Assembly: GCA_017962375.1 (NCBI GenBank)
Contig: JAGCVJ010000011.1
Location: 289,793 to 353,792, forward strand
Direction of reading: 5' to 3'
Source of the DNA: Bacteroidales bacterium
GTDB taxonomy: Bacteria; Bacteroidota; Bacteroidia; Bacteroidales; UBA932
DNA: 64,000 nt
Positions 1-12,754 of the stretch are shown in pieces. How positions within the stretch are numbered: the first letter of the stretch is position 1; each line of letters opens with the position of its first letter. A program made the position numbers and the translations under genes. The notes under the pieces are model-generated. The model made no database searches. It was not told the DNA's origin and saw only the letters and a program-made list of their open reading frames with translations.

Positions 1-929
1 CGGTAGTTGTCTATCTCGTAAATCTTGTAATACTCGCGGGTAGGGTCGTTCATTATCATCACATAGTCCTTGGCGTTGTAGTCTGCAGGAACTATGCTCT
101 TGTAGAACTCCAAAGGAGTGGTCTTTACGGTCCTGACCTTGCCGTCATTGTCTCTGAACTTCCAGGTAAACTCGGTTGGAGGTTCGCCCAGGCAGATGGC
201 CAGAATGCGGTACACGTCCTTGAGGGTTTCCATCTTCACTTTCTCGGCTTTGGTATGAGGGTCGCCGCTGAGGCCGCTGCTCATTACCTTCATAGCCTTC
301 TCGTAAACCTGGCGGATTTCATATCCTCCCTTGCGGAGCCTTTCGTTCACTATGCCCAGGAACTGGCCGGTTGCGTTGCTCTGCTCGGTCTCAGGCATAA
401 TTTCCGCAGGCACCACACCGTATTTCTCGCCGATGTTGTAGAACAGGTTCCACACTCCGCCGTCACCTACAGGAGACTTGAACAGCTCGTCTACAGCCCT
501 CTCGCCGAACGGAAGGCTGGAGGTCTTGATAACATTCTCCAGGAAGAGGTTGGCCTTTTCCAGTATGTCCCAGAAATAGCTGTAGTTGTGGGAGAAGTCA
601 AAGTTCTTGATGTTGTATTTCTTCATCACGATTGGCCTGAGCTGGTTCATTGAGGTGAACATCCAGCATCTGCCGCTGCTCTTCTGGTCTGTGATTCCGC
701 TCACGTCCACGTTGTACTTGAAGAAATCATCGGTTCCCTGAACAACGGAAGGGTCGTAGGCAAGGGCCTTGATTCCCTTGTTTGCCACGATGATGTTGTG
801 GATGCTCTTGGCGTAGGCGTCGTTGTTGAAGCTGGCCTTGAGCTCAGCGAGTTCATTCTGGCCGAGGCTCTGGGCCATCAGGCTGCCGCCCAGAAGCATC
901 GCGATAAATAACAGTGCGGTTTTCTTCAT
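1..929 (-). CDS. pepC: Aminopeptidase C (C1-family bleomycin hydrolase), 3' part cut by window edge
   Basis: The minus-strand frame from the ATG at 927-929 runs open to the window edge, so the C-terminus is missing. It begins with a signal-like stretch (MKKTALLFIAMLLGG...AQS), suggesting export. The catalytic cysteine motif SSGRCWMF follows at about residues 80-90, then the family-typical stretches FSHNYSYFWDILEKAN and YGVVPAEIMPE. This is the papain-fold bleomycin hydrolase/PepC family, which trims peptides from the N-terminus as a cysteine peptidase. The catalytic His and Asn lie beyond the window. The gene is 11 bp downstream of a shortened relative on the same strand, so the two are probably co-transcribed with glnA or from a nearby promoter. 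Confidence 0.93.
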   Translation of the reverse strand, partial: MKKTALLFIAMLLGGSLMAQSLGQNELAELKASFNNDAYAKSIHNIIVANKGIKALAYDPSVVQGTDDFFKYNVDVSGITDQKSSGRCWMFTSMNQLRPIVMKKYNIKNFDFSHNYSYFWDILEKANLFLENVIKTSSLPFGERAVDELFKSPVGDGGVWNLFYNIGEKYGVVPAEIMPETEQSNATGQFLGIVNERLRKGGYEIRQVYEKAMKVMSSGLSGDPHTKAEKVKMETLKDVYRILAICLGEPPTEFTWKFRDNDGKVRTVKTTPLEFYKSIVPADYNAKDYVMIMNDPTREYYKIYEIDNY

Positions 930-940
930 ATCGATAATAA

Positions 941-1837
941 TTAAAATTTCTTTTCCTCTATTGTTTTGTCTGTAGGAGGAACTCCGAGTTCATCGCACAG
1001 ATACCTATAAACATATACCATGGTTTCTGTTCTGGTCTTTAGCAGCAGTTCTTGAAGTAATTTGCATCTCTTGGCCAGCTCTTCCACATGTGCATAGTCA
1101 TCTTTTTTGTGAGACCTGTCCGGACGGTCTATCATGAGGCTTTTTTCAGCTTCATATGTCTTGTAAAGATGGACATATTCATCGTTGAGCTTCCTGAATA
1201 TGCGAGCGCCACGTGCAAGTATCGCAGATACGTTGTCAAAGAGCCCATCAGGCTTTTTCAAATATAATCCGTCCGGCATCAGCTTCTCAGGGACGCAACC
1301 ATAAGTTCCTATGATATAATCAAATACGTCTTGGTTCCCGGTTTCTGAAATAGAATTGTTGAGAAGGTTGGTTGCGTATGGCTGATCTCCTGTATAGCCG
1401 GCCGTAGCCACAACTGCTTCGTTGAACAGATAGGCCTTGGCCATAAGTTCAAAGAACAGTATGTAGTTTCCGGATATCTGGGATTTCTTCTTTCCTGCAG
1501 TTCGCTTGAGCTGACCCTTCAGATTTTCAAGTCCGGTAGAGAACCATTTCCTGTCTGCGGCTACCGGTTCATGATTAGCAAGGGACTTCCGGCCTTCTTC
1601 TATCAACTCGTCTACGTTTTCGGCAAAGTAGTTCTTATCAATGGAAGCAAGGACGATCCAGTTGAAAGCGGCGGTGTCCATTACCCATTTGCATTCTTTG
1701 TAGTAGTTGAATTCCCTGAGTTCGGTAACCTTGGGATTCATGCCCGCTGCAACTTTCTTGGAGTCTTGGGCATAAGCCTTCATAGAGAAAAGTGCAGGCA
1801 GTGTTGCCATGAGCAAAACAATTAGTGAAGTTTTCAT
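941..1837 (-). CDS. Truncated, catalytically dead paralogue of aminopeptidase C
   Basis: This 298-residue secreted protein has signal peptide MKTSLIVLLMATLPALFSMKAYA. By eye it aligns with the neighbouring PepC through its whole length. NYILFFELMAKAYLFNEAV matches NYSYFWDILEKANLFLENV, YGCVPEKLMPD matches YGVVPAEIMPE, and the tail CDELGVPPTDKT matches the PepC stretch LAICLGEPPTEFT. At the active site, GRCWMFTSMN of PepC is replaced by FNWIVLASID, so the cysteine appears to be lost. The protein stops where PepC continues toward its His and Asn residues, so all three catalytic residues are absent. It lies between glnA (12 bp) and pepC (11 bp) on the same strand. A role as a binding or regulatory partner is possible but only a guess. 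The homology is read by eye. Confidence 0.72.
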   Translation of the reverse strand: MKTSLIVLLMATLPALFSMKAYAQDSKKVAAGMNPKVTELREFNYYKECKWVMDTAAFNWIVLASIDKNYFAENVDELIEEGRKSLANHEPVAADRKWFSTGLENLKGQLKRTAGKKKSQISGNYILFFELMAKAYLFNEAVVATAGYTGDQPYATNLLNNSISETGNQDVFDYIIGTYGCVPEKLMPDGLYLKKPDGLFDNVSAILARGARIFRKLNDEYVHLYKTYEAEKSLMIDRPDRSHKKDDYAHVEELAKRCKLLQELLLKTRTETMVYVYRYLCDELGVPPTDKTIEEKKF

Positions 1838-1849
1838 AATTCAAAGTAC

Positions 1850-3352
1850 TTATCCGCAGTGGAAGTATTTCTTTACCATCTGGAGCATTTCCTGAGGACG
1901 GTTCTCTATCTCCTTTCTCAGCCATCCGTCTCTGTAGGCTTCAAGCTGGGAGATGATTCCGTCTATCATGTTGGCTGAGAAAACGCCTTCCCTTTCGTAG
2001 AACTCTCTCTGCTTCTGCAGGCAGCGGGCGCTTGCCTGGCAGCTGTCAGGGAGCTGCTCAAGGCGGGCCAGCTTGTCTGCGTTCTTGGCGTCGTGGATGT
2101 TCACGTTCACGTACTTGTCTTCTGCAACCTGCAGGGCGTCAGGCATCTCGATACCGATACGGCAGGCTACGCAAAGGGCTGCTATAAGCTGGTAAACGTC
2201 TGCGCTTCCGTCCGGAGAACGCATCTCCACGGTCTGCTTCTGGGTGGTGTCTATTCCGGAAGGTTTCTCCAGAGGGTTGGCCAGGGTGCACATGTCGCCG
2301 CCGGCGGTCCATCCCAGAGGAACCCTTACCAGAACTGAGCGGTTGCGGTCTCCCCAGCAAACGTTTGTAGGGGCCTCCTGGTGAGGAACCAGACGGAAGT
2401 AAGATGTAGGAACCTTGTTTCCGAAGGCGGTGATTGAAGGAGCCAGCACCATCATTCCGGCAATTGCCTTGCGGGCTGTATCTGACAGAACTCCGTTTTC
2501 AATCATCTGGCTCTTGCCGTCCTTTGTGATTTTCATGTGGATATGCAGTCCGCTTCCGGCCTTTCCTGATGTGATCTTTGGAGCAAATGTCACGTCAAAT
2601 CCTTGCTGGTAACCCAGGTTGCGGATTATCCATTTGGCCAGAGTGAGCTGGTCTGCAGCGTCTTCCGCAGCCGTAGGCAGGAACTCTATCTCGTTCTGCT
2701 CGTAGATCTTGCCGCCGAGAGTGAAGTTTCCCACTTCTGAGTGACCGTACTTTATCTGTCCGCCGGCCTGCGCTATGTAGTGCATGCACTGGGTGCGGAA
2801 CTGGTTGAACTTGGCAAACGGGCCGCTTTCGTGATAACCTCTCTGGTCAGTGGCCGGGAAGAGGTTGTCGTCTTCTGCAATCACATAATACTCAAGCTCT
2901 CCCATTGCCTGGAACTCGCATCCTGTCTTCTCCTTGAAGATCTTGCAGGCCTTTCTGAGAGTGTGCTCAGGGGCGCTTTCCAGAGGCTGGCCGTCCTTGT
3001 TGAAGAAGGAGCAGAGCATAGTTACGGTAGGAATCTCGGCAAACGGGTCCAGGAAAGCGGTGCGGAACCTTGGCAGTACATAAAGGTCCGAGCTGGAAGC
3101 TTCGATGAACTTGAAAAGAGAACTTCCGTCAACTCTTTCTCCGCAGGAGAGTATGGTGTTGAGATAATCCTCGTCGCTGATTACAAAATTCAGGGTCTTG
3201 AGTCTTCCGTCACCTGCAGGGTACATAAAGTTGACCATCTGTATCCCGTTGGCCTTGATATAGGCTATTATGTCTTCCTTGGTAAACTCGGAAGGTTTTT
3301 TCTGGAGAAACGCCACAATGGCGTTCGGATTCATGCTTATTACGTTATTCAT
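1850..3352 (-). CDS. glnA: Glutamine synthetase, type I-like
   Basis: The 500-residue protein makes glutamine from glutamate, ammonia and ATP in the cytoplasm. Visible family motifs in order are MGELEYYV (glutamate and metal site), EVGNFTLGGKIYEQNEIEF, GSGLHIHMK (ATP/metal site), GDRNRSVLVRVP (the NRS..R.P signature) and VEMRSPDGSADVYQLIAA. The length of about 500 fits the shorter glutamine synthetase of Bacteroidota rather than the roughly 730-residue GSIII. The start MNNVISMNPNA is preceded by a good -7/-33 promoter at 3404-3435. Before the mobile element inserted, the gene would have followed the nqr terminator directly. Confidence 0.95.
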   Translation of the reverse strand: MNNVISMNPNAIVAFLQKKPSEFTKEDIIAYIKANGIQMVNFMYPAGDGRLKTLNFVISDEDYLNTILSCGERVDGSSLFKFIEASSSDLYVLPRFRTAFLDPFAEIPTVTMLCSFFNKDGQPLESAPEHTLRKACKIFKEKTGCEFQAMGELEYYVIAEDDNLFPATDQRGYHESGPFAKFNQFRTQCMHYIAQAGGQIKYGHSEVGNFTLGGKIYEQNEIEFLPTAAEDAADQLTLAKWIIRNLGYQQGFDVTFAPKITSGKAGSGLHIHMKITKDGKSQMIENGVLSDTARKAIAGMMVLAPSITAFGNKVPTSYFRLVPHQEAPTNVCWGDRNRSVLVRVPLGWTAGGDMCTLANPLEKPSGIDTTQKQTVEMRSPDGSADVYQLIAALCVACRIGIEMPDALQVAEDKYVNVNIHDAKNADKLARLEQLPDSCQASARCLQKQREFYEREGVFSANMIDGIISQLEAYRDGWLRKEIENRPQEMLQMVKKYFHCG

Positions 3353-3403
3353 AAAACTATCGTTGAAATTTAAAAATCAAATTAAATTTGCGTATAAAGT
3401 TTT

Positions 3404-3435
3404 CAAAGATAAGTTTTTATTCCCGATTTCCCAAA
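3404..3435 (-). promoter_or_regulatory. Bacteroides-type promoter for glnA
   Basis: On the minus strand a TATCTTTG box (3404-3411) fits the TAnnTTTG -7 consensus. A TTTG at 3432-3435 lies 20 bp upstream at the -33 position. The transcription start would fall about 45 bp before the glnA ATG. The -33 box touches the T-run of the old nqr terminator. Confidence 0.6.
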
Positions 3436-3460
3436 TAAAAAAGCCTCCCGGCGGAGGCTT
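3435..3460 (-). terminator. Original nqr operon terminator, displaced from nqrF
   Basis: Perfect 8-bp arms AAGCCTCC / GGAGGCTT with loop CGGC (3441-3460) are followed on the minus strand by a run of T. It lies about 22 bp after the stranded original nqrF stop codon (3483-3485). It therefore probably ended nqr transcription before the element integrated, and may now stop transcripts leaving the element. Confidence 0.72.
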
Positions 3461-3482
3461 TCTTAATCTTGCAACGCTTTGG

Positions 3483-3506
3483 CTAAGCGCCGAAGTTGTC
3501 GTACAT
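3483..3506 (-). repeat. Left attachment site: stranded original nqrF 3' end
   Basis: Read on the minus strand this encodes MYDNFGA-stop, exactly the C-terminus of NqrF 4.8 kb away. The first 14 bp (aagttgtcgtacat, 3493-3506) are identical to 8262-8275. The rest differs only at synonymous positions (GGC GCT against GGA GCA). This is the tail displaced when the element recombined into nqrF. Confidence 0.85.
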
Positions 3507-3570
3507 TAGTTTGGTATATTTTTGTAAATTATTGATACTCAGTTAAAAAGCCCCGTAAGGATTTTTGCTA

Positions 3571-3590
3571 ACTGACAAACGACTGACAAA
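3571..3590 (+). repeat. Paired ACTGACAAA motifs, left end
   Basis: Two exact copies of ACTGACAAA (3571-3579 and 3582-3590) are spaced 11 bp start to start. The same pair with the same 11-bp spacing occurs at the other end (8092-8111). They lie about 65-100 bp inside the left crossover site. They are likely arm-type binding sites for the element's tyrosine integrase. Confidence 0.6.
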
Positions 3591-3669
3591 AACGGCCTTT
3601 TATCGTTCCTCTTGGGGCAAGTTTGGCTAATTCAAATTTGGTTTTGCAATACAAATATACAAAATATTC

Positions 3670-4008
3670 TCATTCAGTCCCATTAGCCTTTCTAATGTAA
3701 TAAACGACTTGCTCTAATAATTCCGTTGGAACAAGACTTAAATCGAGTTCCGGCTGTACTTCTTTCCGATTCAAATCTGCTCTTATGTCTCCAGTTATAG
3801 CCTGTTGTTTGGGTAGAACATATTGTAGTAGTTTCTCGTAAAAGTTTAGACGGGTTTTTGAATCTGCTTTTTTTAAGTCCTGTTGTACTTGTCTCCGATT
3901 CTTCTGTAAAATGTCGTTTATCCATTCCCGTAGGTCAGAAGTAACTTTGTTGGGGCTTCCTTTTGGCCTCCCATACGGGTTGCCGGTTTTACCTTTTATT
4001 TGTGCCAT
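3670..4008 (-). CDS. Small basic protein of unknown function, element gene
   Basis: The protein has 112 residues. Its N-terminus GKTGNPYGRPKGSPNK resembles the GNP-GRPKGS motif at the start of DUF5681-like proteins often carried by phages and mobile elements. The middle (SDLREWINDILQKNRRQVQQDL) is charged and probably helical, followed by LLQYVLPKQQAI. It is the last gene of the element, 33 bp after the replication initiator, so the two are probably co-transcribed. A DNA-binding or packaging-related role is conceivable from the basic N-terminus but nothing shows it. I cannot assign a function. Confidence 0.7.
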   Translation of the reverse strand: MAQIKGKTGNPYGRPKGSPNKVTSDLREWINDILQKNRRQVQQDLKKADSKTRLNFYEKLLQYVLPKQQAITGDIRADLNRKEVQPELDLSLVPTELLEQVVYYIRKANGTE

Positions 4009-4041
4009 AATTGTCGATAAATATGTTTTTCAATGTTGTTT

Positions 4042-4959
4042 TCATTGGGCTAAACAAGTTTCTATAATTCTGTCTCGAAGTTCAGATAATAGCCCGTTCC
4101 CTGATTTGTATTGCTCGTTATAGAAGTTTGCAACCTCTTTTTTGAGCCTGTGTGCATTTGTGTTGCCTCTCTGTGTTTCCCTAAGCCACTCGCTGAGGTC
4201 GTTTGCATTTACTCCAAATCTCTTTTGCAATACGAAAATGTATTGTAATAAAGTTTCCGTTTTCCCTTTTCCCTGTCTTATGGCTGAGGCCGTTTTGAAA
4301 AGGCTCTCAAAATACTTTCTCCATTGCTCCAATAGCCGTTTATAAACATTTTTGTTGCTGAGGTCTGATAATGTTCTTGTCGGTAGATAAGGCTTTATAG
4401 CCCCGTTTTTCAACTTCATTTCATAGCGTAATAGATTGTTTAGCCCTGTCGGTATATGTTCGTTTCTATGTTCCATTTCTAAAAGTTTATCATAAAATAC
4501 GAGTTCTCGCTGCTCTGCTTTTTGTTTGTAGTAAAGAGTTGTTTTTCTTACAAGTTCTTTACTGAATCTTGGTAAATATCCGCTTGAGTTCAGTTGTTTA
4601 ATGTACGCTGTCGGTTCATTTTCCATAACAAAAGCACTTCCAAACTCAAGCCTCTTAACTATCATTTTATCGGGAGTTATTCTAAATGTTCTGCAGAGTT
4701 TATTAATAGCGTCCTGTAAATCGTTCCAGTCCATAGTATTAAAATTGCTCCCTGTAAAAAACCTTGTTAGGCTTCCTGATATATTCAACCCTCGCTGAGT
4801 TATCGAAACATTTAGCCCTCCGTACGAGCCTTTTTCGTAAACTTTAGTGCCGTCTGAATCAAATCCAGTAACCTTGTTTTGCAAATTCTCTGAGAGTTCA
4901 TAAATAACGGCTTCTGTTTCCCAGTCGGATAATATTCCCAATGCTATTCCGTCTATCAT
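4042..4959 (-). CDS. Replication initiator, filamentous-phage gene II/X (RstA) type
   Basis: The 305-residue protein has features of the Phage_CRI/Phage_X replication proteins used by inoviruses and the satellite RS1. These are GLNVSITQRGLNISGSL, then TRFFTGSNF (the GS..KF..G.N region), then KRLEFGSAF in the place of the RxD strand, then LVFYDKLLEMEHR (the Y-K element) and LLRYEMKLKNG (the R.E..L element). Such proteins nick the double-strand origin to start rolling-circle replication. The gene follows a 170-bp noncoding stretch with a long-spaced inverted repeat that may hold the origin. Family assignment is by motif memory only. Another Rep family is the main alternative. Confidence 0.62.
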   Translation of the reverse strand: MIDGIALGILSDWETEAVIYELSENLQNKVTGFDSDGTKVYEKGSYGGLNVSITQRGLNISGSLTRFFTGSNFNTMDWNDLQDAINKLCRTFRITPDKMIVKRLEFGSAFVMENEPTAYIKQLNSSGYLPRFSKELVRKTTLYYKQKAEQRELVFYDKLLEMEHRNEHIPTGLNNLLRYEMKLKNGAIKPYLPTRTLSDLSNKNVYKRLLEQWRKYFESLFKTASAIRQGKGKTETLLQYIFVLQKRFGVNANDLSEWLRETQRGNTNAHRLKKEVANFYNEQYKSGNGLLSELRDRIIETCLAQ

Positions 4960-5129
4960 AATGTAGTCTTGTTAGTTGTAATAATGCCCGTTTTTTGCCG
5001 TTTAGCATCTCAGTAGAGTCACTATATATTCAAACCTAACTCGTCAATAATGAAGTGTTTTTTACATTGTTATATAAGCCTGAAAATATAATTATGTTAA
5101 ATAGAAAAACGGGCATTCCTTACATTTGG
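4960..5129. other. Noncoding stretch with 13-bp inverted repeat, candidate replication origin
   Basis: No gene is visible in these 170 bp, which are the longest intergenic gap between genes inside the element. A perfect 13-bp inverted repeat, aatgcccgttttt at 4983-4995 and aaaaacgggcatt at 5105-5117, brackets an AT-rich core. It lies directly upstream of the replication initiator gene. A role as double-strand origin or single-strand priming site is an inference from position. Confidence 0.4.
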
Positions 5130-5693
5130 TTATTGAGTTAATTGAACACAGATTCCCTCCTGTTTCAATCGTTCTATTTCTGCATCGATTAAACCCAATG
5201 CAACAGCCTTACAATAGTCCTTTGCCCTTAGCCTTTCGTTTCTGATAATAGCAAAGTATATGACAGACGGAACATATAGCAAACAATCTTCATTTGCGTT
5301 GGTGTAGGCCACATATGCCCCAAACTTGAATAAATAAGCGTCTGCTCTGTGTGGGTGCATATAATTAAGTTTCCCGTCTTTACTTCGTTCCGACTGGCTT
5401 GCCTCCCCGTAGGCTGATATTTCCTGTAATTTCCACCCATCTTTAGTTAGCCACCTCAGCCCAGTTATATTCAGCCCTCCGACTCCCTGAAGATTAATAG
5501 CCGGAGCATCGGGCTTATTGCTTCCTCTGTTGGGCTTATAGTAAAGATACCTCCTGCCTTTTCTCCCCCGATACTCTAATAATGGGCTGCTCCCTAAATA
5601 TTTTTCAAGTATATAAGTAGGGGTTTTCTTTTCTGTTCCTGCTTCCAATACCCATTTTGAAATGAAAGCCAAATTTGAATATCTGCCAATCAT
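5130..5693 (-). CDS. Unknown element protein, 187 residues
   Basis: I do not recognise this protein. It has an aromatic and basic middle (YRGRKGRRYLYYKPNRGS), a glycine-rich stretch (INLQGVGGLNITGLRWL), and a hydrophobic segment LLYVPSVIYFAIIRNERL that might be a buried helix. No signal peptide is seen. It starts 2 bp after the HTH gene stop, so the two are surely one transcript, upstream of the candidate origin and the replication initiator. By position it could assist replication or copy control, but the sequence does not show this. Confidence 0.75.
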   Translation of the reverse strand: MIGRYSNLAFISKWVLEAGTEKKTPTYILEKYLGSSPLLEYRGRKGRRYLYYKPNRGSNKPDAPAINLQGVGGLNITGLRWLTKDGWKLQEISAYGEASQSERSKDGKLNYMHPHRADAYLFKFGAYVAYTNANEDCLLYVPSVIYFAIIRNERLRAKDYCKAVALGLIDAEIERLKQEGICVQLTQ

Positions 5694-5695
5694 AA

Positions 5696-5977
5696 TTAAA
5701 CCCTCCTAAAACTTATAGCCTTTGCTTCAAGTTCTGCATCTGTTGCAATACGATTTTGCAAAAGCCATTGTTCAACTTCGTTCTTGTCGAAATAGATTCC
5801 CTTTCCACTTGGTTTATAGTGTGGTATTTTGTGCTTACAAGTGAGTTTGTATAGATAACTTCTGCTGAGGCCTGTAAGTATTGCCACATCTGAAAGCGTC
5901 AAGACTCGTTTAGTAGATAGAATAGAGTTTCGTTCTATCCTGTTTAATTGTTCCTGTATTGTGGAAAAATCTTCCAT
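5696..5977 (-). CDS. Helix-turn-helix protein, excisionase-like
   Basis: The 93-residue MerR/excisionase-type protein has the segment LTLSDVAILTGLSRSYLYKL, then HKIPHYKPSGKGIYF and NEVEQWLLQNRI. This is the standard layout of small HTH proteins carried by Bacteroidota mobile elements. I chose the start MEDFSTIQEQLNR at 5977 because this family usually starts there. An upstream extension to 6055 is open but looks non-native. Likely roles are directionality factor for the integrase or regulator of the downstream replication genes. It heads the second transcription unit, after the hairpin at 6101-6128. Confidence 0.78.
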   Translation of the reverse strand: MEDFSTIQEQLNRIERNSILSTKRVLTLSDVAILTGLSRSYLYKLTCKHKIPHYKPSGKGIYFDKNEVEQWLLQNRIATDAELEAKAISFRRV

Positions 5978-6100
5978 AACAATAAAATTTAGATTGTGGC
6001 CTTTTCGTGTAGGTTGGACGCTACACGATACTTTGCCAATACAAACAACCTCCAACTATGTTGTTTGCAAGAACAAAAGAAGATAATACGAGAAAAAAAA

Positions 6101-6128
6101 AACGGATATGTTAATGAACATACCCGTT
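6101..6128 (-). terminator. Hairpin terminator after the integrase transcript
   Basis: The imperfect hairpin AACGG(a)TATGTT-aatg-AACATA(c)CCGTT is followed on the minus strand by nine T (6092-6100). It lies 41 bp after the stop of the 237-residue gene. It separates the integrase unit from the replication unit. Confidence 0.65.
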
Positions 6129-6168
6129 AATAATTGTCTAAGTTTTGAGTTACATCTGTTTGCTATTG

Positions 6169-6882
6169 TTAAGTATTAAGTCCTAATAACTTTTTATACT
6201 CGGTTTCTTTTTTGAGTTTATCCCAATTCTTAACTTTTTGTGCATAAGAAACGGCTAAATTCTTAATTCCCCAAAAAGGTTCAAAGATTTTCCAAACCTT
6301 TGTCTCTAAACAAAGTTCTTTGGCTAACACTAAAGCCAAAACAGCCTTTTCTCGATTTGTTTTCATTGTAGGTTGGTACAGAGACGAATCTAATAAGCCT
6401 ACCTCAACGGCTTTTGAGAATAAACGCTTAGCGTCTTCTGAAGCAAGGTCAGGAAAAGCAACTTTTAGATAATCGTTGTTAGTTGTTGCTATCATTCGTT
6501 TTAGTTTATTGTAGATTTTTTCACGCTTAGCCTCCCGTTCTTGTATATACACAATTCTTTTTTCGTATTGCTCTATGGTTTCTCCACGAAAGTCTAATTG
6601 TAACGGGTTTTTGTTAATATATCGTAATTCCAAAAACAACTCCCTGATTTTGTCTCTTCTCTTTACAATGTCAATATAGTTTTTTGCTTCGTCAATCGTT
6701 TTAATATCCGGCCAATCCGGTGTGAAAAGAGAATCAACAAAGGCCGTAATTTCATAAATACTATAGTTGCTGTCAATGCTTTTTAACTTCTCTCTGACAG
6801 AAGCAATTAGTTTTTCTTTATTGTTGTTAGTGTATGCCTTGTAGTCTTCGTAGTCCTCAATATTGATTAGATTTCTTTCCAT
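6169..6882 (-). CDS. Unknown element protein of a Bacteroidota mobile-element type
   Basis: The 237-residue protein is rich in Lys, Glu and Asn and mostly helical in appearance. A central charged segment (YIQEREAKREKIYNKLKR) could form a coiled coil. The C-terminus (KRLFSKAVEVGLLD ... KAVLALVLAKEL ... KVWKIFEPFWGIKNLAVSY) resembles a repeated C-terminal pattern I associate with Bacteroidota integrative elements, but I cannot name the domain. It begins one base after the integrase stop region (6884), so it is translated from the integrase mRNA. A regulatory role in excision is possible. Function is unknown. Confidence 0.72.
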   Translation of the reverse strand: MERNLINIEDYEDYKAYTNNNKEKLIASVREKLKSIDSNYSIYEITAFVDSLFTPDWPDIKTIDEAKNYIDIVKRRDKIRELFLELRYINKNPLQLDFRGETIEQYEKRIVYIQEREAKREKIYNKLKRMIATTNNDYLKVAFPDLASEDAKRLFSKAVEVGLLDSSLYQPTMKTNREKAVLALVLAKELCLETKVWKIFEPFWGIKNLAVSYAQKVKNWDKLKKETEYKKLLGLNT

Positions 6883-6883
6883 A

Positions 6884-8041
6884 TTATTTAATGCTCGGTA
6901 TTAGATTAACTGCCTTTCTCTTTGTCTCTGCCACTACCTTAGCGTAGATTTGAGTAGTGTTAATATTCTTGTGGCCTAAGAGTTCCTTTATTGTATATAC
7001 ATCTGCCCCGTAGGATAGGGCAAGAGTTGCAAATGTATGTCTTGCAGTATGGAAAGATATATGTTTCTCAAGTCCGGCTCTTTTACTCCAGTCTTGCAGA
7101 ATATCCCATACAATATCCACCCTTGCAAGATTGAATACAAGGCCGTTTTCAGGGGCTTTCTTTGGCTTGGTGGGTAGATACTCCAACGCAAAGACGGATA
7201 GCGGAACAAAGGCCGTTTCTTTGGTTTTCTGCATTGTTTTAACAACCTCCTTGCTCCCGTCCGGTAGCGTCTTTATGTCCTCCCACTTAAGCGTAACTAT
7301 ATCGGAATACCTCAGCCCCGTATAGCAAGAGAACAAAAAGGCGTTTTGTGTTTCCTTGTAGCGTTTTGTAGTGCCTCCGTATATTCTCGCTTTTGTATGT
7401 TGTAAGGTCTTTAATTCCTCAATAGTAAGGAATACTCTTTTGCTCTGTTCCTGTTTCGGGCGTTGTTTAGCGTCAAGCCTCCGGCTTGGGTTGTCCTTTA
7501 TATATCCCTCTTTTACGGCTCGGTTTAAGGCAATAGCCACAACATCGTAATACAGGCTTTGACTATTGGCTGAAAGGGGCTTGCCGTATTTGTTCAAAGC
7601 CGTTTTAAGGTGTTCTATATATCCCTCTAAATATGCCTTGTCTATCTTGTTTAGCGGTCTGTCTCCGTAGGTCTTTACTTGTTTGATAGTGTTTCTTATT
7701 GAGGACTGGTAAGCCGTACTGCCTTGTTTTTGAAAACGCTCTCTTTCCTGTTGCAGCCAGTCGCTGAGGTATATTTTGCCCCTGCCTATTGGTCTAAAGC
7801 CCGTAGTTCCATTTTGTAGTTCGGTTATCCGTTGGGCTTTGACTGCTTGGGCAAGTCTTAGGGTTTCCTTGTTCCTGCCCTTGTCTGTGCTTTCGTGTTC
7901 GGGTATAAGATAAAGTTTAAGATACTCCCTTACACGCTTTCCGTTTAGGTTGTAGTCTAAATAAAGTGAAATATTCCCGTCTTTGATTTTCTGTTGTCTC
8001 AGTTTAACGGGTTCTTTGGCCTTGTAGATTCGCTTTGCCAT
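6884..8041 (-). CDS. Tyrosine recombinase (phage-type integrase)
   Basis: The 385-residue integrase catalyses insertion and excision of the element. An N-terminal arm-binding/SAM-like region (DYNLNGKRVREYLKLYL, then NTIKQVKTYGDRPLNKID) precedes the catalytic domain. Catalytic residues visible are Arg in CYTGLRYSDIVTLKW, His-x-x-Arg in FHTARHTFATLAL, His in LLGHKNINTTQIY, and the Tyr of that last motif. This is the common Bacteroidota transposon-type integrase architecture. The gene is next to the right attachment site. An inverted ACTGACAAA copy lies just upstream of its ATG (8052-8060), so integrase binding might repress its own promoter. Confidence 0.95.
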   Translation of the reverse strand: MAKRIYKAKEPVKLRQQKIKDGNISLYLDYNLNGKRVREYLKLYLIPEHESTDKGRNKETLRLAQAVKAQRITELQNGTTGFRPIGRGKIYLSDWLQQERERFQKQGSTAYQSSIRNTIKQVKTYGDRPLNKIDKAYLEGYIEHLKTALNKYGKPLSANSQSLYYDVVAIALNRAVKEGYIKDNPSRRLDAKQRPKQEQSKRVFLTIEELKTLQHTKARIYGGTTKRYKETQNAFLFSCYTGLRYSDIVTLKWEDIKTLPDGSKEVVKTMQKTKETAFVPLSVFALEYLPTKPKKAPENGLVFNLARVDIVWDILQDWSKRAGLEKHISFHTARHTFATLALSYGADVYTIKELLGHKNINTTQIYAKVVAETKRKAVNLIPSIK

Positions 8042-8051
8042 AGTCTTTTTA

Positions 8052-8111
8052 TTTGTCAGTTAGCACCGACAAATATACAACTTTAATGCAAACTGACAAA
8101 ATACTGACAAA
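8052..8111. repeat. Three ACTGACAAA motifs, right end
   Basis: Exact copies of ACTGACAAA lie at 8092-8100 and 8103-8111 (plus orientation, 11-bp spacing) and at 8052-8060 (reverse orientation). A related CCGACAAA lies at 8066-8073. The pair mirrors the left-end pair. They sit between the integrase start and the crossover site, where arm-type integrase sites and the int promoter would be expected. Confidence 0.6.
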
Positions 8112-8178
8112 ATATTGTCCGTTATTTATCCGTCAAAAAGAAAACAACCTCAGCAAAGGTCAGAATAAGTAAAACAAG

Positions 8179-8203
8179 AAAGCCCCTCAAATAGAGGGGC
8201 TTT
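8179..8203 (-). terminator. Element-borne terminator now ending the nqr operon
   Basis: Perfect 10-bp arms AAAGCCCCTC / GAGGGGCTTT with loop AAATA are followed on the minus strand by CTTGTTTTACTT. It lies about 48 bp after the present nqrF stop and inside the element. It therefore replaces the original terminator stranded at 3435-3460. The symmetrical stem could also stop transcription on the plus strand. Confidence 0.7.
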
Positions 8204-8251
8204 CCTTAACTATTAGTTGGAGTTTGTTTTCTCTTGTTTTACCCTGAGAAA

Positions 8252-9493
8252 CTATGCTCCAAAGTTGTCGTACATGATGTTGTCCGGCTGAACGCCCAGG
8301 TTGTCCAGCATGTTGACAGCAGCGCTGGTCATCATAGGAGGGCCGCAGAGGTAGTATTCGATGTCCTCAGGAGCAGGATGGTTCTTCAGGTAGTTGTCAA
8401 ACAGAACCTGGTGGATGAAGCCGGTAGGGCCTGTCCAGTTGTCCTCAGGCAGAGCGTCTGAAAGGGCCACGTTGTAGGAGAAGTTCGGGTTCTCCCTTGC
8501 AATCTCTGCAAAGTCTTCGTCGTAGAACATCTCTCTGCGTGAGCGGGCACCGTACCAGAAGCTGACCTTTCTCTTGGTGTGCAAGGTCTTGAACAGGTGG
8601 AAGATGTGGCTTCTCATAGGGGCCATTCCGGCACCACCGCCGATAAATACGATCTCGTTGTCGGTATCCTTGATGAAGAATTCTCCGTAAGGGCCGCTGA
8701 TGGTGATCTTGTCTCCTGGCTTGAGGGAGTAGATGTAAGAAGAGCAGATGCCCGGATTTACCGGAACCCACTGCTTCTTTGCCCTGTCGAACGGAGGAGT
8801 TGCAATACGCACGTTCAGCATGATGATGTTGCCCTCTGCAGGGTGGTTGGCCATTGAGTAGGCTCTGAAGGTTGGGGTAGGGTTGACCATCTTCAGGCCG
8901 AAGATTCCCATCTTCTCCCAGTCTCCGCGATACTCAGGCTCAACCTCTATGTTCTTGTAGTCCACCTCGCAGGCAGGAACGTCTATCTGGATGTAGCCGC
9001 CGCTGCGGAAGTTTACGTTCTCGCCCTCAGGCAGCTTGACAACAAACTCCTTGATGAATGTGGCCACGTTGTGGTTGCTTACCACTGTGCACTCCCACTT
9101 CTTCACTCCGAGAACTTCCGGAGGAAGCAGAATGCCCAGGTTCTCCTTTACCTTCACCTGGCAGCCGAGCCTCCAGTTGGAGAGCTGCTCCTTGCGGGAA
9201 AAGAAGCCCACCTCGGTAGGGAGGATGGTTCCGCCTCCGGTAACTACCTGGCACTTGCACATGCCGCAGTTGCCTTTTCCGCCGCAGGCAGAAGGCAGGA
9301 ATATCTTGTTGTCGGCCAGGGTGGAAAGCAGAGTTCCGCCGGTTGCCACCTCAAGCTGTTTTTCGCCGTTGTTGATGTCAATGGTGACATTTCCTGAAGG
9401 AAGGAGCTTGGCCTTTGCAAAAAGCAGAAGGGCTACAAGCAGAAGGGTGATGATCAGGAATACGATTATTGAAGTCAAAATTACTGTACTCAT
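8252..9493 (-). CDS. nqrF: Na+-translocating NADH:quinone reductase subunit F
   Basis: The 413-residue electron-entry subunit oxidises NADH and passes electrons through FAD and a 2Fe-2S cluster. It has one N-terminal membrane helix ([21 protein letters not shown]). The ferredoxin-type cysteines are in [16 protein letters not shown] with a further Cys in WRLGCQV. The FAD-site motif is [10 protein letters not shown] and the nucleotide-site motifs are [13 protein letters not shown] and YYLCGPPMM. It is the last gene of nqrABCDEF. Its last few codons (from about 8261 down to the stop at 8252-8254) were supplied by the integrated element, leaving the protein sequence MYDNFGA unchanged. Confidence 0.97.
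8262..8275. repeat. Right attachment core (14-bp direct repeat)
   Basis: The sequence aagttgtcgtacat is identical to 3493-3506 and encodes MYDNF(partial) of NqrF. Chromosomal nqrF lies to its right and element sequence to its left. Crossover must have occurred within or very near this 14-bp identity. Confidence 0.82.
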
Positions 9494-9504
9494 ACTCTCT
9501 CCTC

Positions 9505-10119
9505 CTAGATGTTAATGCCCATAAAGCCCATGAAGGCGATAGCCATAAGGCCGGCGATTATGAATGTAATGCCCAGTCCCTGAAGAGGTTTAGGCACTTT
9601 TGAATAAGCTATCTTCTCTCTGATTGCCGCAATGGAGACTATGGCAAGGAACCAGCCTACGCCGCTTCCCAGTCCGTAGCAAGTTGCAATACCCAGGCTC
9701 GGGAAAGCTCTCTGCTGCATGAACAGCGAGGCGCCCAGGATGGCGCAGTTCACTGCAATCAGCGGAAGGAAGATTCCGAGCGAGGAGTACAGAGAAGGAG
9801 AATATTTCTCAACCACCATCTCCACCAGCTGAACGAACGATGCGATAACGGCTATGAAAATGATGAAGCTGAGGAAGCTCAGGTCTACGTTTGCCAGGTC
9901 AGGAGATATCCACTTGAGGGCTCCCGGGCTCAGCAAGTATTTGTTCAGCAGATAGTTGATAGGAAGGGTTATGCCCAGCACGAATATTACGGCAATACCC
10001 AGTCCTATGGCTGTCTTCACGTTCTTTGACACTGCCAGGAAAGAACACATTCCCAGGAAGTAGGCAAAGATCATGTTGTCTACGAAGATGCTCTTTACGA
10101 AAATGTTCAATGCTTCCAT
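9505..10119 (-). CDS. nqrE: Na+-translocating NADH:quinone reductase subunit E
   Basis: The 204-residue integral membrane subunit has six predicted hydrophobic segments, for example [15 protein letters not shown] and [19 protein letters not shown]. It pairs with NqrD to hold an iron centre through conserved cysteines in the membrane. Candidates are Cys in GMCSFLAVS and in [11 protein letters not shown]. It carries the family motifs [19 protein letters not shown] and [13 protein letters not shown]. The gene is 11 bp before nqrF and 12 bp after nqrD in the same operon. Confidence 0.96.
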
Positions 10120-10131
10120 AGTGGTATGTGT

Positions 10132-10749
10132 TTATTTCTTGTCGTCATCTTTCTGATAGCTTCTCTGAATCCAGATAAGGCATCCGATAAGTATCAAAGC
10201 CATAGGCGGCATTATGAACAGTCCGTTGTTCATGTAGCCGGCCTCGTACCAGCTCTGCGGAATAATCTGCGCACCGAAGATGGTGCCGCTTCCGATGAGC
10301 TCTCTGAAGAACGCCACTATCACCAGTATCAGGCCGTAGCCCAGTCCGTTTGCCAGACCGTCAACCAGAGAAGGCAGAGGTTTCTCGGTGAGTCCGAAGG
10401 CCTCGATTCTTCCCATGATGATACAGTTGGTGATAATCAGGCCCACGTAAACCGAGAGCTGCTTGCTCACGTCGTAAACGTAGGCTTTCAGAAATTCTGA
10501 AATCAGAATCACGAACATGGCAACCACAACAAGCTGCACGATGATTCTGATACGGTTAGGAATAGTCTTTCTTATCAGCGAGATAAGGAAGCTCGAAAGT
10601 CCTGTCACAAGGGTAACGGAAATTCCCATCACGATTGCGGGTTCCAGCTTGACAGTTACCGCAAGGGCAGAACAGATACCAAGCACCAGCACCGTGATTG
10701 GGTTGGCCTTGATTATTGGTGTCGTGAATATTTTCTTGTCCATTGCCAT
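10132..10749 (-). CDS. nqrD: Na+-translocating NADH:quinone reductase subunit D
   Basis: The 205-residue membrane protein is homologous to NqrE and RnfE. Hydrophobic segments include ITVLVLGICSALAV (with a conserved Cys) and LSVYVGLIITNCIIMGR (second conserved Cys), then LANGLGYGLILVIVAFFREL. With NqrE it forms the membrane iron site between the NqrF cluster and the NqrC flavin. It starts 2 bp after the nqrC stop. The N-terminus MAMDKKIFTTPIIKANPI matches family starts. Confidence 0.96.
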   Translation of the reverse strand: MAMDKKIFTTPIIKANPITVLVLGICSALAVTVKLEPAIVMGISVTLVTGLSSFLISLIRKTIPNRIRIIVQLVVVAMFVILISEFLKAYVYDVSKQLSVYVGLIITNCIIMGRIEAFGLTEKPLPSLVDGLANGLGYGLILVIVAFFRELIGSGTIFGAQIIPQSWYEAGYMNNGLFIMPPMALILIGCLIWIQRSYQKDDDKK

Positions 10750-10751
10750 AA

Positions 10752-11582
10752 CTATTCGGTTTTAGGATTTTCCTCAGCGACCGGTTCAGGAGCGGCTCCT
10801 GAAACAATCTTCTGAAGGTAAGGCTTGTAGTAATTCATCCAGTTGGAGATCATTGTCTGTACCGCCTTGGAAGTGATGGTGGCTCCGCTGATGGCGTTGA
10901 TTTCGTTGGCCTTGGCGTTGGCGTTGCCGCCTTTGACAACGGTGATAGGAATAATCTCTCCGTTTTCGAGGATTACCTTGTCGGTAAACTGGGAGCGGAA
11001 CTTGCCGGTGACAATCTCTCCTCCCAGGCCAGGAGTCTCGCTGGAGTGGTCGAACAGGGCTCCGGCAATCTTGCCGTCTTCCTTAACTGCAATGTATGTC
11101 CAGATAGGGCCCCAGAGGCCTGAACCGTAGCCGGAAAGAATGTAGTTCTTGCTTCCGTCCGGATTGTTGCAGATGAACACAGGGAGCTTCAGGTCTTTTG
11201 CAAGAGCCTCTTTGGCAGCCTGGTCCTGGGTGCCGTCTATTTTTCTCATTATGTCGTACTGGTCCGCGGCAGCAACCCTGAAGGCGTCGCAGTCTCCGAT
11301 TTTATCGGTGAAGCTTTCCACAATTTCTCCTTCATTGTTAACTATCTGGGCCTCGGCGATGTACTTGTCAAACTCGTCCTGCACGTATTTGTTCCTGTCG
11401 GATACGGTCTTGGCATCGGCAGCCAGGCCGGCGCAGTTGAGAATGTTCATCTGCTTCTCAACCTTGATGTTGGTCTGCTGGCGATTCTTAAGACCCATTG
11501 AAACAACAGCCAGGATAGTAGCCACGATGGCCACCAGGGCAATCGTGTAAAAAACTGTGTATGTATTTTTGTTAGTATCCAT
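10752..11582 (-). CDS. nqrC: Na+-translocating NADH:quinone reductase subunit C
   Basis: The 276-residue periplasm-facing flavoprotein is anchored by an N-terminal helix (YTVFYTIALVAIVATILAVVSM). The FMN attachment motif SGATITSKAV carries the threonine to which FMN is covalently bound. I set the start at MDTNKNTYTVF (11582) because it gives the usual N-terminus and lies 11 bp after nqrB. The open frame extends further upstream into nqrB but that part is not NqrC-like. The C-terminus is extended with a PEPVAEENPKTE tail. Confidence 0.95.
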   Translation of the reverse strand: MDTNKNTYTVFYTIALVAIVATILAVVSMGLKNRQQTNIKVEKQMNILNCAGLAADAKTVSDRNKYVQDEFDKYIAEAQIVNNEGEIVESFTDKIGDCDAFRVAAADQYDIMRKIDGTQDQAAKEALAKDLKLPVFICNNPDGSKNYILSGYGSGLWGPIWTYIAVKEDGKIAGALFDHSSETPGLGGEIVTGKFRSQFTDKVILENGEIIPITVVKGGNANAKANEINAISGATITSKAVQTMISNWMNYYKPYLQKIVSGAAPEPVAEENPKTE

Positions 11583-11593
11583 ATCGCTATTGT

Positions 11594-12754
11594 TTATTTG
11601 GCTACAGCTCTCTTTTCTCTCCTGCGGATGTTCTTTCTGACAACGCACCAGTCAATCAGCGGCGCCATTGTATTCATCAGCAGGATAGCGAGCATCATGC
11701 CCTCTCTGTATCCAGGGTTGAACAATCTTAATATCACGCACATGGCTCCGATCAAGAAGCCGTAAATCCACTTGCCGGTCTCGGTCTGGGCTGAAGAAAC
11801 AGGGTCTGTAGCCATGAACACGGCACCGAACGCGAATCCGCCCATCACCAGATGGTTGACTGCAGGGTAGGCTGCAAAGGTGCCAGGCTCAGCCAGGCCG
11901 TTTGCCAAGAATCCTACTGCCAGAGCTCCGGCAACGCAGGAAACCATAACCTTCCAGCTTGCAACGCCGGTCCATATAAGAAGGATGGCGCCCAGAAGGA
12001 TGGCAATTGTTGAAGTTTCGCCCACTGAACCAGGAATGTTTCCTATGAACATCTGCAGGAAGTCAGGCGCTCCGGAAACGCCGTCTGCAACCTGTGCCAG
12101 AGGAGTGGCTCCGGAGAATCCGTCAATTATCTGGTCTGCATGCTTGCCCAGTCCGCCAACCCATACGGAATCGCCCGTTATGGTTGAAGGATAGGCGAAG
12201 AACACGAAGGCTCTTGCCAGAAGGGCAGGGTTCCAGATGTTCATTCCGGTTCCGCCGAAGATTTCCTTTCCGAAGATTACGGCAAATGCAACTGCAAGAG
12301 CCAGAACCCACAGAGGAACGTCTATTGGCATGATCAGCGGGATGATGAATCCCGTTACCAGATATCCCTCGTTTACCTCGTGGCCCCTTACCTGGGCAAA
12401 GGCGAACTCAATTCCAAGTCCAACAATGTAGGAAACCAGGATGAGAGGAAGTATGCGGTAGAAACCGTACCATACTTTCATCCAGAATCCCCACTGAAGG
12501 CCGAATGCCATAGAGTGCTGGTCTCCCGTGTTCCACATTCCGAAGCAGAATGCAGGCATCAGGGCCATCACAACTACAATCATCACTCTCTTGATGTCCA
12601 CGGCGTCCTTGATGTGAACCCTTCCTGAAGTTGTGGTTGCAGGAACGGCGGCAAAGGTCTCGAACGCGTCAAAGGTAGAGTGGAGCCAGCCGAGCTTTCC
12701 TCCCTTGGAGAATGTCGGCTTCATCTTGTCTATCGTCTTTAATATCCAATTCAT
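11594..12754 (-). CDS. nqrB: Na+-translocating NADH:quinone reductase subunit B
   Basis: This 386-residue multi-spanning subunit is the main sodium channel and quinone-site component. It starts with the family N-terminus MNWILKTIDKMKPTFSKGGK. Its FMN is attached at the threonine of DGFSGATPLAQV (about residue 210-220). Family stretches KEIFGGTGMNIWNPALLARAF and MATDPVSSAQTETGKWIYGF are present. Eight or more hydrophobic helices are visible. It is 4 bp after nqrA and 11 bp before nqrC. Confidence 0.97.
   Translation of the reverse strand: MNWILKTIDKMKPTFSKGGKLGWLHSTFDAFETFAAVPATTTSGRVHIKDAVDIKRVMIVVVMALMPAFCFGMWNTGDQHSMAFGLQWGFWMKVWYGFYRILPLILVSYIVGLGIEFAFAQVRGHEVNEGYLVTGFIIPLIMPIDVPLWVLALAVAFAVIFGKEIFGGTGMNIWNPALLARAFVFFAYPSTITGDSVWVGGLGKHADQIIDGFSGATPLAQVADGVSGAPDFLQMFIGNIPGSVGETSTIAILLGAILLIWTGVASWKVMVSCVAGALAVGFLANGLAEPGTFAAYPAVNHLVMGGFAFGAVFMATDPVSSAQTETGKWIYGFLIGAMCVILRLFNPGYREGMMLAILLMNTMAPLIDWCVVRKNIRRREKRAVAK

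What the first reader, a model, noticed from the sequence alone, without database searches (positions are those of the whole stretch)
3493..8275. Compact integrative element in the 3' end of nqrF, with no obvious transfer or capsid genes
The sequence shows a 4.77-kb unit bounded by a 14-bp direct repeat that lies in the coding end of nqrF. It carries an integrase, an HTH protein, a replication initiator and three unassigned genes, all on one strand. From family knowledge, tyrosine-recombinase elements often use tRNA or gene 3' ends. An nqrF site is not one I know to be described. Use of a conserved respiratory gene end would give a broad Bacteroidota target. Its movement would need a helper or a mechanism not visible here.
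Basis: partly seen in the sequence, partly recalled or inferred. Interest (0 to 1): 0.85.

Follow-up and report, generated by a model that had tools for sequence, protein, structure and literature searches.

The report
Tiny helper-dependent mobile element in nqrF
A 4.8-kb mobile DNA element has inserted into the very end of a bacterial respiratory gene and repaired the gene with its own copy of the last codons; it belongs to a family of similar small elements in the Bacteroidota that seem to need a helper, perhaps a phage, to move between cells.

Summary
A 4,769-bp element lies between two exact 14-bp copies (3493-3506, 8262-8275), one inside the last codons of nqrF. Joining its flanks gives an ungapped 3,138-bp alignment to an empty site in a congener. 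A second element with a 73%-identical integrase sits at the same nqrF position in another species of the genus, whose joined flanks also match empty sites. The element restores the nqrF C-terminus (MYDNFGA*) and brings its own terminator. Its genes (integrase, abutting variable ORF, AlpA-like excisionase, ~150-190-aa protein, filamentous-phage-type initiator, DUF5681) recur in other Bacteroidota; of sites settled, most are tRNA genes and several mnmE. nqrF use was seen only in this genus. How it moves is unproven. In 4 of 13 other DUF5681 loci opened, the gene lies directly before a large terminase, so I favour a phage-satellite reading, with conjugative mobilisation by a relaxase-like Rep close behind. 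New variant of a known kind.

The parts
8252..9493 (-). nqrF, target gene; its last codons (MYDNFGA*) are now supplied by the element
   Evidence: Pfam Fer2, FAD_binding_6, NAD_binding_1; ORF; the name nqrF is from gene content and operon context, not from a call
8262..8275 (.). core repeat, integrase-side copy (attL, inside nqrF)
8252..8261 (-). element-borne replacement of the nqrF end (TGGAGCATAG, synonymous with the displaced host end)
   Evidence: same layout in G031
3493..3506 (.). core repeat, distal copy (attR)
3483..3492 (-). displaced original nqrF end (CGGCGCTTAG), identical to the nqrF end of empty site L045
8176..8206 (-). element-borne terminator-like hairpin after the restored nqrF stop; G031 has one at the same place
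3440..3461 (.). displaced host terminator-like hairpin, found directly after nqrF in empty sites L044 and L045
6884..8041 (-). tyrosine integrase (arm-binding, core-binding, catalytic domains)
   Evidence: Pfam Arm-DNA-bind_5 7.8e-15, Phage_int_SAM_5 5.6e-14, Phage_integrase 2.6e-25; R244, H331, R334, H357, Y366 shared with G031
6169..6882 (-). 237-aa ORF abutting int (1 nt gap); fast-evolving gene in the same slot of many relatives
   Evidence: no significant Pfam, PADLOC or PHROG assignment
5696..5977 (-). HTH_17/AlpA-like putative excisionase (start put at the ATG inside the listed ORF 5696-6055)
   Evidence: Pfam HTH_17 2.7e-11, Phage_AlpA 1.9e-5; TIGR01764 excise 1e-9
5130..5693 (-). 187-aa protein of unknown function, recognised in 18 of 36 family loci mapped
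   Evidence: no significant Pfam match
4042..4959 (-). Rep, rolling-circle initiator of the Phage_CRI (filamentous phage G2P) family
   Evidence: Pfam PF05144 7.5e-10; all 11 aligned members match PF05144, best 1e-35; motifs
3670..4008 (-). DUF5681 protein; candidate small-terminase-like protein
   Evidence: Pfam PF18932 2.8e-6; TerL-adjacent relatives
3571..3590 (+). two arm-type repeats ACTGACAAA, 11 bp apart, distal end
   Evidence: kept in G031 with one base changed in one copy
8092..8111 (+). two arm-type repeats ACTGACAAA, 11 bp apart, integrase end
   Evidence: kept in G031
8052..8060 (-). fifth, inverted arm-type repeat just before int
4983..5117 (.). 13-bp perfect inverted repeat with a 109-nt spacer before Rep; candidate origin (guess)
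   Evidence: I11; DNA fold z -4.36, 0 of 200 shuffles as stable
1850..3352 (-). glnA, downstream host neighbour

Best explanation
It is a compact, site-specific integrative element. SHOWN: it inserted at the 3' end of nqrF through a 14-bp core, replaced the last codons with synonymous ones, and left the original end and terminator on the far side. INFERRED: the integrase, using arm sites (ACTGACAAA) at both ends and the AlpA-like protein, recombines a ~7-bp overlap (TGTACGA) at the centre of an imperfect CCAAA...TTTGG core, so the element can excise as a circle. The Phage_CRI-type Rep then nicks the circle and drives rolling-circle replication. Having no recognised transfer or virion genes, it moves with a helper. 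MOST LIKELY BUT UNPROVEN: the helper is a tailed phage, the DUF5681 protein acts as the element's own small terminase, and rolling-circle concatemers are packaged; that is, a phage satellite working like PICMIs and (recalled) PICIs.
For: Empty site and insertion; a second nqrF element in G031 with the same arm sites, terminator and gene-end replacement. Integrase under purifying selection, dN 0.19, dS 2.35, against dS 0.50 (nqrF) and 0.68 (glnA) for the hosts, so the two elements look like separate acquisitions. Conserved module in relatives: 14 of 36 Rep loci mapped show int, xis, p150/187 and Rep in one direction. Rep residues Y156, R178, E180 in 35 of 35, K158 in 34, D or E at 105 in 33, fitting most of the Rep_trans/Phage_CRI motifs described in PMC5714925 (passages). 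Satellite step: DUF5681 lies immediately before a large terminase in two phages and two Bacteroidales loci, and it is kept in three compact elements with another replication module. PICMI115 is 6.1 kb with int, an int-overlapping gene, alpA, a primase gene and unknown genes, and packages rolling-circle concatemers (PMC10803314, passages).
Against: No particle, circle or helper was seen. DUF5681 was recognised in only 12 of 36 Rep loci. Of six phage DUF5681 neighbourhoods opened, two abut the large terminase; one has two genes between, one lies near an annotated small terminase on the other strand, two show no link. Of seven other Bacteroidales DUF5681 loci, two abut a large terminase, three lie in compact elements, two were not settled; in the two that abut it the DUF5681 match covers only about 25 and 44 profile positions. 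Matches to Felixounavirus-type proteins rest on 22-40 N-terminal residues, so the shared part may be only a DNA-binding motif. Rep relatives are absent from 50,697 phage records with two Rep queries; five IMG/VR scans gave one integrated copy cut by the contig end. In Rep, motif I reads RLE here, not RxD, and the tyrosine at 143, a candidate nucleophile, is kept in only 22 of 35, though in all 11 of the core alignment.
Confidence: 0.45

Rival explanations
1. Integrative mobilizable element: after excision Rep acts as its own relaxase at an unidentified oriT and the DNA leaves through the conjugation machine of a co-resident ICE or plasmid.
For: Phage_CRI initiators share active-site motifs with Rep_trans, the MobT relaxase family (PMC5714925, PMC4797284; passages). 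Streptococcal IMEs with compact integrase-excisionase-RCR initiator modules exist and one Rep_trans initiator was shown to be the relaxase (PMC5357655, PMC7563843; passages). Three of 39 genus genomes carry a Bacteroidetes-type TraG over cut-off.
Against: No coupling protein or canonical relaxase domain in the element. No TraG hit in its own 87%-complete genome or in G031. Phage_CRI is not among the IME relaxase families in the tables whose passages I read.
Confidence: 0.35
2. Satellite of a filamentous phage: Rep makes ssDNA circles that a helper inovirus extrudes (as recalled for RS1/TLC of Vibrio).
For: Rep belongs to the filamentous-phage G2P family: Pfam PF05144 in 11 of 11 aligned members.
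Against: No Zot/pI gene in the element or its genome. Zot in 1 of 39 genus genomes, marginal, and 12 of 393 order genomes, only three above 45 bits, none of them among the 18 other order genomes with this Rep; the Zot model also rings in 4-5 of 14 control genomes, so weak hits mean little.
Confidence: 0.08
3. A decayed or domesticated remnant that no longer moves.
For: Motif I D-to-E in Rep; some relatives have split genes (L096 integrase, L141 Rep). The two nqrF elements are strongly diverged.
Against: All six window ORFs are open; integrase dN/dS about 0.08 between the two nqrF elements; att core exact; arm sites present and conserved.
Confidence: 0.1

Closest known systems
PICMI (phage-inducible chromosomal minimalist islands, Vibrionaceae; PMC10803314, passages read)
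   Same: Size class, integrase, gene abutting int, AlpA/HTH_17 protein, own replication protein, no capsid genes; rolling-circle replication (inferred here)
   Different: Different replication protein (Phage_CRI, not a DUF3987/DUF5906 primase), not beside fis, different phylum, carries DUF5681; no helper phage known
Streptococcal IMEs with RCR-initiator relaxases (PMC5357655, PMC7563843; passages read)
   Same: Compact tyrosine integrase - excisionase - RCR initiator layout, no mating-pore genes
   Different: Initiator is Phage_CRI rather than Rep_trans, Rep_2, PHA00330 or Viral_Rep; no TcpA; Bacteroidota
NBU1/NBU2/Tn4555 (Bacteroides IMEs; PMC5704250 and PMC8138268, passages read)
   Same: Bacteroidota, tyrosine integrase with arm-binding domain, several use gene 3' ends
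   Different: They carry MobP relaxases; none was found here
SGI1 and relatives (trmE/mnmE 3' end; abstract in listing; size in a table passage)
   Same: Use of a conserved protein-gene 3' end, the same gene as the mnmE members of this family
   Different: 42-kb class, IncC helper; homology of genes was not tested
Filamentous phages with G2P-type Rep
   Same: Rep family
   Different: No Zot/pI or recognised virion genes

Membership tests
Site-specific integrative element (tyrosine integrase type) | integrase gene, direct-repeat att sites, empty site in relatives | tested here: met
Site-specific integrative element (tyrosine integrase type) | excision as a circle | not testable with these tools
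   no reads or culture
PICMI | integrase PF00589 and AlpA (PF05930/PF12728) | tested here: met
   model definition in PMC10803314
PICMI | DUF3987/DUF5906 primase | tested here: not met
PICMI | integration beside fis | tested here: not met
   site is nqrF
Phage satellite (general) | packaging in helper phage particles | not testable with these tools
   no particle data; DUF5681-TerL adjacency is indirect
IME | no mating-pore genes | tested here: met
IME | relaxase and/or oriT used by a conjugative helper | tested here: inconclusive
   Phage_CRI motifs mostly present; oriT not sought; no transfer data
NBU-type Bacteroides IME | MobP relaxase | tested here: not met
   no relaxase domain in any of six genes
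Inovirus | Zot/pI assembly ATPase | tested here: not met
Inovirus | small coat protein gene | not tested
   ORFs below 50 aa were not examined

The most novel reading that the evidence does not exclude
A Bacteroidota-wide family of minimal phage satellites (typically 4.4-7.7 kb) that pairs a filamentous-phage-type rolling-circle initiator with its own small terminase (DUF5681) to enter tailed-phage particles. It keeps an int - variable ORF - AlpA chassis while swapping replication modules, and its integrases shift between tRNA, mnmE and nqrF ends.
Probability: 0.35. Interest if true: 0.82.

Novelty: new variant of a known kind. Interest (0 to 1): 0.6.

Why it matters
It adds nqrF to the gene ends used by integrases (not found in the papers searched) and shows gene-end replacement in two elements, each with empty sites in relatives. 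It exposes a compact element family in Bacteroidota that carries neither recognised transfer nor virion genes: the Rep was found in 19 of 393 genomes of the order and 15 of 395 of the phylum, own genome included. It gives a concrete, testable guess for DUF5681, a family of unknown function: a small terminase. If right, minimal phage satellites would be a feature of a major gut phylum (recalled) in which I recall few being described.

Tried and rejected
Structure prediction of Rep and the ~150-aa protein with two-row alignments gave useless models (mean pLDDT 36.5 and 40.9), so no fold search was run. Solved-structure profile searches gave one chance-level hit each, E 0.59 and 0.67. IMG/VR scans with the window's Rep and with the nqrF integrase pair found none; the A4 Rep alignment found one, L109, which two further scans only found again. 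The ~150-aa protein was sought in plasmids (none) and IMG/VR, not in the phage collection. Small 'Bacteriophage sp.' records with related integrases were opened as possible free circles: seven of 19 matching records were read; none has an exact terminal overlap of 15-299 bp or a Rep of this family, two hold an xis-like gene and one an mnmE, so they are read as genome or element fragments. Rfam gave no match in 1-12000. PADLOC gave one match among 12 variable ORFs (2.1e-4), not pursued. Among 26 cargo proteins of relatives, the 25 families shown of 36 held no relaxase, portal or capsid. DUF5681 as a mere generic motif was not excluded. Literature: nqrF with 'integrative element' 0 papers; nqrF with integrase 3 papers, listing only, titles unrelated; DUF5681 with terminase 1 paper, a Salmonella phage characterisation whose passages list DUF5681 among proteins detected by mass spectrometry. 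Other searches. The library lacks most subscription journals, so 'not described' means not found there.
Full report
WHAT IS THERE. The window holds nqrF at 8252-9493(-) and glnA at 1850-3352(-). Between them lies a unit bounded by an exact 14-bp repeat, 3493-3506 and 8262-8275, spacing 4,769 bp. No other copy with up to one mismatch is in the window, and shuffles expect 0.02. G+C is 38.0% inside and 49.5% outside. Six genes lie on the minus strand in the order int, 237-aa ORF, AlpA/HTH_17-like protein, 187-aa ORF, Phage_CRI-type Rep, DUF5681. Pfam, PHROGs and NCBIfam at E up to 1 show no canonical relaxase, coupling protein, mating-pore, large terminase, portal, capsid or Zot gene. One chance-level match of the AlpA-like protein to a small-terminase PHROG (E 0.075) is disregarded.

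INSERTION IS PROVEN BY COMPARISON. In two congeneric genomes (L044 of G016, L045 of G026) nqrF is followed directly by the sequence that in the window lies left of 3493, through terminator and glnA. Joining the window's flanks gives a single ungapped 3,138-bp alignment to L045 at 91.9% identity, spanning the junction. Of 21 nqrF loci read (window and 20 fetched stretches of different length, one of them cut before the stop codon), only the window and G031 had a related integrase downstream. Over whole genomes, 2 of 37 genus genomes (own included) had an integrase of 73% identity or more; the next best in the genus was 45%.

A SECOND nqrF ELEMENT. G031 (named record with the same contig: MAG Bacteroidales bacterium RGIG7574, water buffalo omasum) has nqrF followed by the 73%-identical integrase, where the contig ends 69 bases on. 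Its glnA contig ends inside a DUF5681 gene of the same element, with the distal att site present. The middle of that element is not in these contigs, and no Rep was found in G031. Its joined flanks align across the junction, with gaps, to congeners L047 and L049, while five other congeners align only on either side. So it too has empty-site relatives, in a different local layout: 2,309 bases lie between its displaced nqrF stop and glnA. Integrase dS between the two elements is 2.35 (saturated) against 0.50 for nqrF and 0.68 for glnA, with dN/dS about 0.08. This suggests separate acquisitions of a gene kept under selection; codon bias in nqrF could lower its dS.

GENE-END REPLACEMENT. In the window the nqrF end reads ATGTACGACAACTT-TGGAGCATAG and the displaced host end ATGTACGACAACTT-CGGCGCTTAG; the latter equals empty site L045. 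Both encode MYDNFGA*. That end was matched in 20 of 30 genus loci examined; the other 10 (one cut, nine with more diverged nqrF) did not match the search expression. Each element also brings a terminator-like hairpin just after the new stop.

HOW RECOMBINATION PROBABLY WORKS (inference from sequence). ACTGACAAA occurs five times in the 64 kb, all in the element: two direct copies 11 bp apart at each end and one inverted near int. G031 keeps the pattern, with one base changed in one copy. These are likely sites for the integrase arm-binding domain. Joining the element ends on paper gives CCAAACTAATGTACGACAACTTTGG, an imperfect palindrome centred on TGTACGA. In G031 the two core copies differ at one base just 3' of that heptamer. 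This is compatible with exchange inside it but does not prove it, since both bases occur in host nqrF genes.

THE FAMILY. Rep relatives occur in 19 of 393 order genomes (single-protein query), 15 of 395 phylum genomes (alignment query) and 4 of 39 genus genomes (alignment), own genome counted each time. Neighbourhoods of 39 loci were mapped. In 36 the family profile recognised a Rep; in three (L097, L100, L102) it did not, and those are left out of the counts. Of the 36, within 5.5 kb of Rep: int in 26, p150/187 in 18, DUF5681 in 12; 14 show int, xis, p150/187 and Rep together, one of them (L096) with int in two ORFs; several loci are cut by contig ends. Att repeats of 13-20 bp overlapping a tRNA end were found for 11 of 27 loci with int before Rep: Met (L086, L087, L135), Phe (L095, L098, L108), Arg (L101, L139), Leu (L113, L114, L115). 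Spacing was 4.4-7.7 kb in nine, with L108 at 9.0 and L098 at 13.1 kb. One search shows two more repeats at tRNA ends (L096, L100) that are not in this count. No shuffle control was run for these repeats. Four elements lie directly after mnmE (L109, L133, L134, L137; Pfam MnmE_helical in all four), and a fifth related integrase follows mnmE in the record MT837961. In L133 and L134 an 11-bp exact repeat reading FCIGK* lies 5.8 and 6.6 kb away; over 24 bases these copies match only 15 and 16, no better than or barely above the next-best place (15 and 14), so the case rests on the exact 11-mer and the reading frame. In L137 no distal copy was convincing, and in L109 the contig ends too early. For the remaining mapped loci no target was settled.

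TREES (FastTree supports). Integrases group partly by target: nqrF pair 1.0; tRNA-Leu trio 0.999; a clade holding the nqrF, mnmE, L090 and L091 integrases 0.90. The tRNA-Met integrases do not form a clade, and the L108 tRNA-Phe integrase is apart from the other two. Rep positions differ (L109, L113 and L114 Reps together at 0.987 though their integrases belong to mnmE and tRNA-Leu groups), which points to module exchange; Rep nodes near the window are unsupported.

REP. All 11 aligned Reps match PF05144. In 35 Reps the residues at window positions Y156, R178 and E180 are universal, K158 is in 34, D3 in 32, E161 in 29; Y143, a candidate nucleophile, is in 22 only; the window has RLE in motif I where most have RxD. 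PMC5714925 and PMC4797284 (passages) state that Phage_CRI proteins have motifs similar to Rep_trans. A 13-bp inverted repeat before rep folds unusually well as single-stranded DNA (z -4.36) and is a guessable origin.

HOW IT MOVES. The element must rely on others. Three routes were weighed.

(1) Phage packaging. The window's DUF5681 found four phage records (E 2e-3 to 5e-3). Three were opened: in two the homologue overlaps the large terminase gene by 11 bp; in a Bacteroides phage it does not adjoin one. Three of the 298 and 177 records matched by two relatives' DUF5681 were opened: one with two genes between it and the large terminase, one near an annotated small terminase on the other strand, one without link. 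In Bacteroidales, DUF5681 is in 8 of 149 genomes, own included. Of the seven others, two abut a large terminase: L168/L178 with a 4-bp gap (PHROG 1.4e-75, no Pfam match at 1e-3) and L170 (PHROG 2.9e-45, Pfam Terminase_3). Three belong to compact elements with a related int, and in two a related xis, but no Rep of this family (L175, L176, L177); two were not settled. Window DUF5681 and the two TerL-adjacent phage proteins match the same PHROG (15261) over most of its length, the window weakly (5.5e-4). PICMIs supply the precedent for such a minimal satellite (PMC10803314, passages).

(2) Conjugation with Rep as relaxase, with the streptococcal precedent (PMC7563843, PMC5357655; passages); but no coupling protein, and no TraG in its genome.

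(3) Filamentous helper: Zot is rare.

I put the phage route first and the conjugative route close second.

LIMITS. The genome is an 87%-complete draft of an unnamed organism; nothing here shows activity. Genome contigs allowed one scan, spent on the integrase with two peptide patterns. Publication searches cover open papers only.

Noticed in passing
L109, L133, L134, L137; L159 (MT837961): The 3' end of mnmE (FCIGK*) is a recurrent integrase neighbour in Bacteroidota, the same gene end that SGI1 uses in gammaproteobacteria.
   Followed up: partly
L175, L176, L177: Other compact elements carry a related integrase (and xis in L175 and L177) and a DUF5681 gene but no Rep of this family: Lin1244_N-like gene in L175, DUF6371 gene in L176, unassigned in L177.
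   Followed up: partly
L108 (NZ_OY725790.1, 48553-63164): A 277-kb Parabacteroides 'plasmid' carries a family-like element at a tRNA-Phe gene beside aspartate kinase and other tRNA genes; the record may be a chromosomal piece.
   Followed up: no
L155, L156, L157 (MT839690, MT839164, MT838906): Human faecal 'Bacteriophage sp.' records contain two related integrase genes in tandem and no recognised gene of this Rep family.
   Followed up: no
L044 (G016): glnA matches in two pieces (residues 1-188 and 221-500) next to the empty nqrF site, suggesting a deletion or assembly error in glnA.
   Followed up: no
G010:C8 and G010:C30: One congener draft has two full-length nqrF copies, 95% and 99% identical to the window's, perhaps contamination.
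   Followed up: no
window 6169-6882 and the same slot in relatives: The ORF right after int is present in many relatives but evolves very fast; only a weak C-terminal pattern is shared. PICMI115's int-overlapping gene is needed for excision, so this may be an excision partner.
   Followed up: partly
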